NCBI RefSeq assembly: GCF_910592395.1
Contig: NC_088309.1
Location: 16,558,599-16,622,598 of the forward strand
Reading direction: 5' to 3'
DNA from: Lineus longissimus
Lineage: Eukaryota > Nemertea > Pilidiophora > Heteronemertea > Lineidae
DNA length: 64,000 bases
The translations under genes and the position numbers were made by a program. The notes under the pieces were generated by a model. The model made no database searches, had not been told where the DNA came from, and worked only from the letters and a program-made list of their open reading frames with translations. Shown here one piece after another: positions 12,376 to 14,431 of the stretch (positions are counted from its first letter, which is position 1; every line of letters starts with the position of its first letter).

Positions 12376-13658
12376 GGAACATTCTTCGGTCCACCTGAAC
12401 CCCGATTTGAGGGAAACTATCCTGAGTTCGGAAATGAGAGAGCGGCGAACCCGTACATTTCTGGACCCTCAAAGAAGAAATCACCATCCTCTTGTTCCAG
12501 AAGGAGGTCTAGGACAAGAAAGGAGAAGCCAAAGAAGCGTGTTAGCCATAGCAGCTCAGAGAGCGATTCCGAGTCCGAGAGTTCAAGCGACACCGAAAAC
12601 TCTCCGTCCTTTTCCCGACCTTTCTGATTCTGAGGCAGACGGCGGTCTCCACCTCGTAACAAGCTTCCAATGTTCACAGGTAAAGAAAACTGGGACACTT
12701 TCCTGTTTCAATTCCGGAGACAGGCAAAGCGGTATAAGTGGGATAAAGAGGAGAAAGCTGATCGCCTATACGACTGTTTAGCAGACCAAGCGCTGTTGTA
12801 CGCTATTCAGATGAAAGCCCATAGCTATAAACAGCTGACGAAACATCTGTCGCAACGTTATCAGAAGTCAGTCGCACCCTCTATTGCCAGGAGAGAGGCC
12901 ATGATGTGTAAGCAAAAGGAAAGACGAACCTCTTGAAGACTTCGGCCAACGTGTGTTACAAGCTACTATGGGAGGTTATCCAGATGCCCAGAAAAAGCCG
13001 GTAGACACCCTAGCTGTAGAAGTGTTTTTTCGAGGAATGAGAGACAAGAAAGTAGCTGAGATAGTGGTGGAGAAGCAACCTGCAGATCTTTTTGAGGCCC
13101 TAAAATGCTCCAAACAGATGGAGGCTAATCTGAAGACCCTCTATGGTACAGGCCGGCCTTCTCTTCGCCACGTGACCTTTTGTGAAGAGGATGACAAGAT
13201 TCCGGTAGTTCGGGCTGCACGAGTAGAGGATCCTAAATCCGGAAGTAGTGATAAGCCTACAAGACCGTCTACTTCCAAATCTGATGGTACTTCAAACACT
13301 CAGGTGACGAGCCCACAGTCCATGAATGAGTTGATTCCACAGCTGTTGGCAGCGGCCTTGGGTGATTACTTACACAACCAAGCACCTGGGTTCCAAGGAT
13401 CAAGGAACAACCCACCACCATTTCGTCAATCCACGGACAGAGGACGCTCACCATCACCGGCTGGAAATGGACGTTGGTTTTCTAGTCCTAGACGTGAACG
13501 GACCCCGTCTCCGCGTAGAGGGAATAATTGTTACAACTGTGGAGAAAACGGACATTTCTCCAAAGACTGCCCGAGACCTCATAGACCATCCACTTGCTAC
13601 AAATGTGGAGGTCACAGAAGTGCTACAAATGTGAAGGTCACAGAGTCCGTTAAACGAT
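12376..13658 (+). pseudogene. Retrotransposon Gag: SR-rich region, capsid and CCHC knuckle
   Basis: Frame 1 carries a Ser/Arg/Lys-rich stretch with acidic serine repeats, two TGA codons (12625, 12631), then KLPMFTGKENWDTF and a helical capsid-like region typical of gypsy Gag. A single extra A near 12922 shifts to the frame that continues DEPLEDFGQRV and onward. A CX2CX4HX4C knuckle spans 13529-13570 (CYNCGENGHFSKDC). A second cysteine pair at about 13595 is incomplete and overlaps a tandem duplication. Gag packages element RNA in cytoplasmic particles in related elements. Gypsy affiliation is likely but rests on Gag alone. Confidence 0.75.
13595..13645 (+). repeat. 26-bp tandem duplication at the Gag-macrodomain junction
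   Basis: TGCTACAAATGTGGAGGTCA and following bases (13595-13620) recur at 13621-13645 with one mismatch. Because 26 is not a multiple of three, the duplication changes the frame. Read in the frame of the second copy the sequence hits TAA at 13651-13653; as present, the Gag frame passes on into the macrodomain. Confidence 0.85.
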
Positions 13659-13828
13659 TCCGGGCGACGCTAAGCGGTCAGGCTGTTGCCCCAGAAGGAA
13701 GACGAGACCGTAAAACCATCATAGCCATAGAGGACATTCCAACGTGGCCAGATCATGCGGCAAACCAGCGTATCCATGTGTCAAGTGGAGATGCCAGTCT
13801 ATTTCCCTTAAATCCAGACATAAACAGC

Positions 13829-14431
13829 AAAGTCTCATTGTGGAAAGGGGACATAACTCAATTGAAGGTGGATGTCATAGTCAACGCGGCCAATCACTCC
13901 TTACTTGGAGGGGGTGGAGTTGATGGCGCTATCCACGATGCAGCTGGACCGGGACTTCGCCAAGAGAATGCCGGACATGGGGGATGTCAGTGTGGCGAAG
14001 CAAAGATTAGTGGAGGATACCAGTTACCTGCTCGATATGTCATCTCTACAGTAGGCCCTCAGGATTAAAGGGAAGACAAGTTGACAAGCTGTTATGACAA
14101 GTCTCTAGAACTAGCTAAAAAGCATGGACTTGGTTCTATAGCGTTTCCATGCATAGCCACAGGGCTATACGGGCACCCACCTGAGGAGGCCGTTCGGGTA
14201 GCTCTACGAACAGCACGCCGATTCCTAGAGAAACAAGGAGACTGTATAGATAGAATCATATTCTGTGTTTTCCAGGACAGTGATGTAAAGCGATACACCT
14301 CGATACTACCCACATACTTCCCATTGACAGATAGGACTATCAAGTTAATTAGACGAGTTTCAGTAGACGAACCTGAAGACTTGAAGATGATCAGACTGAT
14401 ACACAACCGAGTGAGTTACCTCCGGCCATGA
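13829..14431 (+). pseudogene. MacroD-like macrodomain fused in frame to Gag
   Basis: The Gag frame continues into a complete macrodomain: KVSLWKGDIT, VDVIVNAAN, LLGGGGVDGAIHDAAGP, GEAKISGGYQLPARYVIS, then FPCIATGLYG and IIFCVF further on. These are the ADP-ribose-binding loops and catalytic Asn/Asp/Gly positions of MacroD1/D2-type ADP-ribosyl hydrolases, all retained. One TAA at 14066-14068, in the same frame, interrupts it between the STVGP strand and the SCYDKSLELA helix; the frame then runs on to 14431. Established role of such domains: removing ADP-ribose from proteins or nucleic acids. No intron is present, unlike most host MacroD genes, which suggests capture through RNA. Role in the retroelement is inference. 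Confidence 0.9.

What the first reader, a model, noticed from the sequence alone, without database searches (positions are those of the whole stretch)
12376..14431. Retroelement Gag fused in frame to a MacroD-type macrodomain
Seen: a gypsy-like capsid and CCHC knuckle continue in one reading frame into a complete macrodomain with all ADP-ribose-binding loops. Known: MacroD enzymes reverse ADP-ribosylation, and some RNA viruses use macrodomains against PARP-based defence. Inference: this retroelement captured a host macrodomain through RNA (no introns) and may have used it to counter host ADP-ribosylation or to control Gag. I know of no described LTR retrotransposon with this architecture.
Basis: partly seen in the sequence, partly recalled or inferred. 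Interest (0 to 1): 0.87.

Follow-up and report, generated by a model that had tools for sequence, protein, structure and literature searches.

The report
Retrotransposons carrying an ADP-ribose-removing enzyme
In the genome of a marine ribbon worm, a family of virus-like jumping genes carries a host-derived enzyme domain that should strip ADP-ribose tags from proteins, and sister elements hold a different enzyme of that kind in the same place, which hints that they needed to undo a host chemical tag.

Summary
The window holds a dead fragment of a Ty3/gypsy-type element: capsid, CCHC knuckle, MACROD-type macrodomain, first residues of a retropepsin. The genome is Lineus longissimus. Five further copies there, with the window copy forming three sublineages, carry the macrodomain between nucleocapsid and protease; for two of them LTRs, primer site and polypurine tract were seen, one with a 4-bp target duplication. 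Where gag is intact, the macrodomain lies in the -1 frame behind an in-phase slippery heptamer and the gag stop; an 83-nt net loss joined the frames in the window copy. The domain is intronless, the host gene lies in seven blocks. Two sister elements hold an OARD1/TARG1-type macrodomain in the same slot; unrelated gypsy-like elements carry MACROD domains too. I infer selection for an ADP-ribose eraser delivered with Gag-Pol; no activity was tested, and one other lineage has lost a catalytic asparagine. Macrodomain ORFs in fish retroviruses are a reported precedent.

The parts
7112..7908 (+). 5' pieces of the same element (7112-7511 and 7673-7908), matching C15a/C15b leader and gag start
   Evidence: blastn, 82-99% identity
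7909..11770 (+). sequence foreign to C15a/C15b, including integrase fragments of another element, inside the element
   Evidence: no match between 7908 and 11771; Integrase_H2C2 and rve matches
11771..12669 (+). gag N-terminal region, broken by stops and shifts
   Evidence: 96-98% to C15a/C15b over matched blocks; tblastn of C15b gag
12670..12936 (+). capsid, N-terminal part, in a frame other than the rest
   Evidence: ORF 88 aa; tblastn with C15b capsid in two frames
12953..13648 (+). capsid C-terminal part and one CCHC knuckle; second knuckle lost in this copy
   Evidence: zf-CCHC E 2.8e-8; 24 nt against 107 nt in C15a
13649..13655 (+). GTTAAAC heptamer (slippery site in intact relatives)
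13662..13711 (+). possible pseudoknot: stem 1 13662-13668 with 13685-13691, stem 2 13674-13679 with 13706-13711
   Evidence: pair counts on 6 copies, 4 distinct
13709..14065 (+). MACROD-type macrodomain, first part, with loop NAANHSLLGGGGVDGAIH
   Evidence: Macro E 4.1e-19; human MACROD1 E 3.6e-29; loops
14066..14068 (+). in-frame TAA
14069..14431 (+). macrodomain, second part, with loop ATGLYG, and a tail
   Evidence: Macro E 2.4e-12; 49% over 99 aa to P0126
14428..14814 (+). linker and first residues of the retropepsin, cut by a tandem repeat that starts at about 14803
   Evidence: P0126 protease start, E 0.001; match to C15a ends at 14803; 28 codons to C15a PR; repeat D2

Best explanation
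SHOWN BY SEQUENCE: the window copy is a dead fragment of a Ty3/gypsy-type LTR retrotransposon family of Lineus longissimus with the order gag, then in the -1 frame MACROD-type macrodomain, protease, reverse transcriptase, RNase H, integrase. The domain is an intronless relative of the host MACROD2-like gene. Sister elements hold an OARD1/TARG1-type macrodomain, or a second retropepsin, in the same slot. INFERRED: ribosomes slip at the heptamer before the gag stop, so a minority of Gag chains run on into macrodomain and Pol. The enzyme is thus made at Pol dose, starts fused to nucleocapsid, and is carried in the particle or freed by the protease. There it removes mono-ADP-ribose set by host PARPs on Gag, Pol, element nucleic acid or host factors during assembly, reverse transcription or integration. 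Two hydrolase classes in one slot suggest that removal of ADP-ribose is what is selected. In the window copy the function is lost.
For: Six copies with MACROD in one slot. LTRs, PBS and PPT for C1 and C15a, ATTG target duplication for C1. In C15a, C1, C5, C5x and C10 a gag frame open for 127-999 codons reads an in-phase XTTAAAC or GGGAAAC 2-7 codons before its stop; the XTTAAAC kind occurs in the last 10 codons of 2 of 695 control ORFs. Downstream pairs kept: 92.3% of cells against 35-48% slid. Host gene in seven blocks, element domain without introns; host and element domains group together, 88/96. OARD1-type domain in the same slot of C5x and C11. Model of P0058, identical to the C1 copy, pLDDT 93.8, best matches human MACROD2 and MACROD1. 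Loop columns identical in 19 of 28 against 37 of 132 elsewhere among five element lineages, p 1.3e-4. C15a against C5: 110 of 132 synonymous and 137 of 435 nonsynonymous sites differ.
Against: No activity was or could be tested. Among recent copies dN/dS of the domain is 0.70-2.16 on few changes, so there is no sign of constraint after insertion. The copies read are damaged: the -1 frame closes after 3 codons in C1, 48 in C5, 47 in C13; the gag frame is broken just upstream in C15b (24 codons), the window and C13 (70). The pseudoknot rests on four distinct sequences, its covariation does not exceed shuffles, single folds show no unusual energy, and 350 of 2000 random 73-mers allow some such arrangement. 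In the P0138/P0128 lineage the last Asn of loop NAAN is Lys, in P0122 and C15b loop 2 is altered, in the C1 copy the His of loop 1 is Gln; by recalled MACROD1 numbering that Asn is catalytic. One gain of MACROD in the clade is neither shown nor rejected.
Confidence: 0.62

Rival explanations
1. The macrodomain binds ADP-ribose but its cutting is not what matters: it steers Gag-Pol packaging or tethers the integration complex to ADP-ribosylated chromatin.
For: Loops are kept and the domain sits next to the nucleocapsid. One other element lineage has lost the loop-1 Asn (P0138). A listing abstract reports that binding, not hydrolysis, of the chikungunya macrodomain is critical in mosquitoes (PMC12632316).
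Against: Two hydrolase classes (MACROD, OARD1/TARG1) fill one slot; pure binders such as macroH2A-type domains were not found there in the 13 gag loci read.
Confidence: 0.2
2. Nucleotide-metabolism aid: the enzyme acts on free ADP-ribose derivatives, as part of a set with the ribonucleotide reductase subunit and TatD-like nuclease of C15a/C15b that favours reverse transcription.
For: RNR small subunit (E 2.9e-109) and TatD-like ORFs lie behind the integrase in C15a/C15b.
Against: RNR was found only in C15a/C15b among the loci scanned; a TatD-like ORF also occurs in C17b and C26, where no macrodomain was found.
Confidence: 0.08
3. Passenger: template switching inserted host sequence by chance and it was carried along without benefit.
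For: dN/dS near 1 among recent copies; the slot also holds a second retropepsin in C10.
Against: Deep constraint (137 of 435 nonsynonymous against 110 of 132 synonymous sites), conserved loops, two related enzyme classes in one slot.
Confidence: 0.09
4. One-off processed MACROD pseudogene next to a Gag remnant.
For: The window copy alone looks like that: no LTR pair, no Pol beyond the protease start.
Against: Five more copies with the domain in the same slot and Pol domains behind it.
Confidence: 0.01

Closest known systems
Epsilon-like endogenous retroviruses of ray-finned fish with macro domain ORFs (Basta et al. 2009, as cited in review PMC4977317; I saw passages of the review only)
   Same: LTR retroelements that carry a macro domain as an additional gene
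   Different: Those are described as additional ORFs of retroviruses; here gypsy-type elements of a protostome, domain between nucleocapsid and protease in the pol frame, and exchange for an OARD1-type domain. Position and type of the fish domains were not seen (paper not held)
Ty3/gypsy retrotransposons
   Same: CCHC Gag, order PR-RT-RNase H-integrase, LTRs, PBS, PPT
   Different: An extra hydrolase domain N-terminal to the protease; RNR and TatD-like ORFs behind the integrase in C15a/C15b
Betaretroviral dUTPase between nucleocapsid and protease (recalled)
   Same: Works alike in layout: a captured enzyme entered by -1 frameshifting after gag, made as a transframe fusion with nucleocapsid
   Different: Different enzyme and element; recalled only, no sequence compared
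Host MACROD1/MACROD2 and OARD1/TARG1
   Same: Sequence, fold and loops
   Different: Encoded inside retroelements, intronless
Macrodomains of alphaviruses, coronaviruses and hepatitis E virus
   Same: ADP-ribose-binding domain in a replication polyprotein; viral macrodomains are said to counteract host ADP-ribosylation-based defence (PMC12632316, abstract start in a listing)
   Different: Best sequence and fold matches here are animal MACROD enzymes, not viral ones

Membership tests
Ty3/gypsy-type LTR retrotransposon | Gag with CCHC and Pol order PR-RT-RH-IN | tested here: met
   C15b and C5 ORFs and C15b integrase; other copies by tblastn. In the window copy itself only Gag, macrodomain and the protease start remain
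Ty3/gypsy-type LTR retrotransposon | LTRs with TG..CA ends, PBS and PPT | tested here: met
   C1 404-bp LTRs with 5 mismatches; C15a LTRs TGTTGT..ACAACA. Not seen for the window copy, C5 and C13; C15b has the 5' LTR only
Ty3/gypsy-type LTR retrotransposon | short target-site duplication | tested here: inconclusive
   ATTG on both sides of C1; no match for C15a
Ty3/gypsy-type LTR retrotransposon | RT groups with Ty3/gypsy reference RTs | not tested
   No reference RT set was compared; trees hold Lineus and database elements only
MACROD-type macrodomain | Macro domain with MACROD sequence and fold | tested here: met
   Pfam, PDB sequences, fold of P0058
MACROD-type macrodomain | ADP-ribose loops NAANxSLLGGGGVDGAIH and STGxYG | tested here: met
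   Window, C15a, C5 and P0126; changes: Gln for His in C1, GA for the G in C15b loop 2, Lys for Asn in P0138; loop 1 of C13 not covered by the row used
MACROD-type macrodomain | removes mono-ADP-ribose | not testable with these tools
   needs enzyme assay
OARD1/TARG1-type macrodomain (C5x, C11) | sequence match to OARD1 | tested here: met
   Human C6orf130/OARD1 chains, E 2.5e-18 and 1.3e-16 for the two pieces of C5x; C11 96% to it. Pfam gave no family
-1 programmed ribosomal frameshift site | in-phase slippery heptamer just before the gag stop | tested here: met
   C15a, C1, C5, C5x, C10; in C15b, window and C13 the gag frame is broken upstream
-1 programmed ribosomal frameshift site | stimulating structure downstream | tested here: inconclusive
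   pairs conserved, but few sequences, covariation within shuffles, no energy signal
-1 programmed ribosomal frameshift site | measured frameshifting | not testable with these tools
   needs reporter assay
Fish epsilon-like ERVs with macro domain ORF | epsilon-like retroviral RT | not tested
   no reference sequence compared; original paper not held

The most novel reading that the evidence does not exclude
LTR retrotransposons of invertebrates have repeatedly taken up ADP-ribose hydrolases (MACROD and OARD1/TARG1 in one slot of one Lineus clade; MACROD after the integrase in P0122; MACROD before the protease in P0138/P0128) and deliver them with Gag-Pol, because host PARPs restrict retrotransposition by ADP-ribosylation, a layer of transposon defence not yet described in these animals.
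Probability: 0.42. Interest if true: 0.92.

Novelty: new variant of a known kind. Interest (0 to 1): 0.8.

Why it matters
Macrodomains are known as counter-defence enzymes of RNA viruses. A retrotransposon clade with two different ADP-ribose hydrolase classes at the same position between nucleocapsid and protease is natural evidence that ADP-ribosylation acts on retroelement particles or intermediates in invertebrates. It gives small test objects: isolated domains and a 73-nt candidate frameshift site. It also shows that a protein annotated as a Lineus host gene (P0058, 'CT2219-like') lies inside a retrotransposon.

Tried and rejected
One-off pseudogene: rejected by five more copies. In-frame Gag domain as the ancestral state: rejected by the frame comparison. 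Gag part alone (residues 1-240): 1966 candidates, none at E <= 0.001. Viral contig scans with the window ORF and with P0126: no confirmed locus. First protein search (proteins of 204-649 aa): 2192 hits, 120 listed, the listed ones all bear Macro; a motif scan of the 239 proteins for CCHC and retropepsin motifs flagged only P0122, P0126 and P0236, and missed the P0138 lineage. A search with a longer reference (about 580-1840 aa; 151 hits at E <= 1, 120 listed) brought P0122, P0126, P0128, P0131, P0138. P0121, P0156 and P0236 are not retroelements by Pfam. One clade of the five element rows then known was borderline rejected (AU p 0.0505; P0058, later found to be the C1 element, was not in that set). 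RT and integrase trees could not settle one gain of MACROD (AU p 0.337; support 66/24). Single-strand folds: no signal. The motif XTTAAAC..GCGGTCAG was absent from all 7 relatives scanned, so that pseudoknot sequence is not shared by C5x or C10, which have other in-phase heptamers. Dating by LTRs was not attempted beyond counting differences.

Not answered: whole-genome searches for the RNR ORF, the OARD1-type domain and the frameshift pattern; of 44 genome-search requests 2 were answered.

Full report
WHAT IS IN THE WINDOW. ORF 12953-14068 holds the second part of a capsid, one CCHC knuckle and the first half of a Macro domain; the second half follows in the same frame after a TAA. The first part of the capsid (12670-12936) lies in another frame. 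A linker with the first residues of a retropepsin (14428-14814) lies in yet another; it aligns with the protease start of P0126 (E 0.001) and of copy C15a (28 codons). Pieces of the same element are also at 7112-7511 and 7673-7908, with foreign sequence from 7908 to 11771, and the match to the other copies ends at 14803, where a tandem repeat begins. No LTR pair, LTR start motif or RT of the family was found in the window. It is a dead fragment.

WHOSE GENOME. The genome has 391 Mb in 30 contigs. Contig C3 has the length given for the contig of P0003, 'MACROD2-like [Lineus longissimus]' (29,083,594), and P0003 maps to it in seven blocks, four of them at 100%. P0058, also named Lineus longissimus, is 100% identical to a stretch of C1. 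The window is from Lineus longissimus, a ribbon worm.

OTHER COPIES. The window ORF gave 36 matches in the genome. A Macro profile gave 10 matches: 7 in six element copies and 3 at two other places that I did not identify. The six copies are the window (C2), C15a and C15b (about 98% to each other and to the window over matched blocks), C1 and C5 (98.2-98.6% to each other) and C13. The five others have the macrodomain between gag and protease, with RT and integrase matches behind it; Pfam domains were confirmed on ORFs of C5 and C15b. C1 has 404-bp LTRs with 5 mismatches, a PBS, a PPT and ATTG on both sides; from the coordinates it spans C1:10411265-10423124. C15a has LTRs ending TGTTGT..ACAACA and a PPT but no matching target duplication. 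C15a and C15b share the 8 bases before the LTR, so duplication of that pair by other means is possible.

HOW THE FRAME IS ENTERED. In C15a a gag frame open for 353 codons reads G TTA AAC in phase and meets a stop 7 codons on; the -1 frame from that site is open for 264 codons, into the macrodomain. C1 (999 codons) and C5 (127) have the same heptamer and stop distance; C5x (733) has GTTAAAC and C10 (279) GGGAAAC, each with the stop after 2 codons. In C15b, the window and C13 (TTTAAAC) the gag frame is broken 24, 5 and 70 codons upstream, so they do not test the phase. The -1 frame closes after 3 codons in C1, 48 in C5, 47 in C13 and 100 in C5x: these copies are damaged. The XTTAAAC heptamer is rare at ORF ends (2 of 695 control ORFs). 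Pairs that would form an H-type pseudoknot behind it are kept: 92.3% of cells paired against 35-48% when slid, stem 2 fully paired. Against this: four distinct sequences, covariation within shuffles, no unusual folding energy, 350 of 2000 random 73-mers allow some such arrangement, and the sequence is absent from the 7 relatives scanned. In the window copy a net difference of 83 nt from C15a removed the overlap and left one frame.

WHERE THE DOMAIN CAME FROM. The host MACROD2-like gene lies in seven blocks in C3, while the element domain matches P0003 196-458 in one run in C15a. In the tree the Lineus elements and P0126 group with the Lineus host protein (88/96, not starred), and one clade of elements alone is not rejected (AU p 0.392). 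P0122 and P0138 fall elsewhere; holding the five element rows first known together was borderline (p 0.0505). This points to separate captures without proving them. P0122 is a gypsy-type polyprotein with the domain after the integrase; P0126 has it before the protease. P0138 and P0128 have it behind tandem repeats and before a retropepsin; P0131 has the repeats and part of the domain. The hosts of these database proteins are unknown.

THE SLOT. Of the gag places I read 13 (the rest were not read): 6 with MACROD; C5x and C11 with an OARD1/TARG1-type macrodomain (best PDB matches human C6orf130/OARD1, E 2.5e-18 and 1.3e-16 for the two pieces in C5x; C11 96% to it); C10 with a second retropepsin; C17b and C26 with about 0.4 kb between gag match and protease and no macrodomain match; C17a and C20 not resolved, no protease found. 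I first took C5x and C11 for elements without macrodomain, because MACROD queries and Pfam's Macro model miss the OARD1 type, so more may exist. RT of C5x and C10 is 72-73% identical to that of C5; gain, loss and exchange of guests within the clade are not ordered by the RT and integrase trees. Two ADP-ribose hydrolase classes in one slot is the strongest clue to function.

FUNCTION. The model of P0058 (identical to the C1 copy) has pLDDT 93.8 and matches human MACROD2 and MACROD1 best. Loop columns are identical among five element lineages (C15a, C5, P0126, P0122, P0138) in 19 of 28, other columns in 37 of 132 (Fisher p 1.3e-4). Loop changes exist: Lys for the last Asn of NAAN in P0138/P0128/P0131, Gln for His in C1, changes in loop 2 of P0122 and C15b; that Asn is catalytic by recalled MACROD1 numbering, so that lineage may only bind. 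Between C15a and C5, 110 of 132 synonymous and 137 of 435 nonsynonymous sites differ, so the domain was constrained over its deep history; its dN (0.41) lies below capsid (0.68) and protease (0.56) and above RT (0.145). Among recent copies dN/dS of the domain is 0.70-2.16 on few changes, as for dead copies, while RT and RNase H of the same pairs give 0-0.28. That the enzyme removes ADP-ribose set by host PARPs is inference.

PRECEDENT AND NOVELTY. Searches of the held library, of which I saw listings: macrodomain or macro domain with retrotransposon or retrovirus terms, accessory domains, MACROD with retrotransposon and mollusc, RNR with LTR retrotransposon, Lineus with retrotransposon, TatD with LTR retrotransposon. 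No listed title or abstract start described this architecture; subscription journals are mostly not held. A review says that fish epsilon-like ERVs occasionally include ORFs for CNPase or macro domain proteins, citing Basta et al. 2009 (passages; the original is not held). In a paper on accessory domains of retrotransposons (PMC6338049, passages) the only word beginning with 'macro' is 'macrophage'. Capture of a macrodomain by an LTR retroelement is thus not new as a kind. New, as far as I could see, are the gypsy-type carriers in a protostome, the place between nucleocapsid and protease in the -1 frame, and the exchange of hydrolase classes.

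Noticed in passing
L016:1817-2737 (+); same region in L010 and L018: A ribonucleotide reductase small-subunit ORF (Ribonuc_red_sm E 2.9e-109) lies behind the integrase in C15a and C15b, in C15a before the 3' LTR. Not found in the other loci scanned.
   Followed up: partly
L018:3555-4997 (-), L016:3302-4084 (+); also L035, L037, L039, L040: TatD-like nuclease ORF (TatD_DNase E 5.9e-30 in C15a) behind the integrase; relatives in C11, C5x, C26 and C17b at 27-38% identity, so it seems older in the clade than the macrodomain.
   Followed up: partly
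L035 (C11) and L037:6496-7392 (-) (C5x): OARD1/TARG1-type macrodomain in the slot between nucleocapsid and protease.
   Followed up: yes
L038:6408-7619 (-): Element C10 has two retropepsin-like stretches in a row before RT (gag-asp_proteas, 2 stretches), the first in the guest slot.
   Followed up: partly
L011:5131-5766 (-): The database protein P0058 'CT2219-like [Lineus longissimus]' is 100% identical to the macrodomain of the C1 element, so an annotated host gene is part of a retrotransposon.
   Followed up: yes
window 43624-47290: RT ORF followed by a tyrosine-recombinase ORF with an ALOG-like match; looks like a DIRS-type element (label recalled).
   Followed up: no
window 19613-25402: Direct repeats at 98-99% (19613-19856 and 25158-25402) around an ORF with DUF1759; looks like a BEL/Pao element (label recalled).
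   Followed up: no
window 14803-15310 and 28603-29236: Related tandem repeats of about 285-300 bp; the first array cuts the retroelement fragment in its protease start.
   Followed up: partly
window 26947-27529: Nine tandem copies spaced 53-55 bp, open as a repetitive ORF.
   Followed up: no
window 16071-16601: DUF6570 match (E 1.6e-8), probably a Helitron remnant (label recalled).
   Followed up: no
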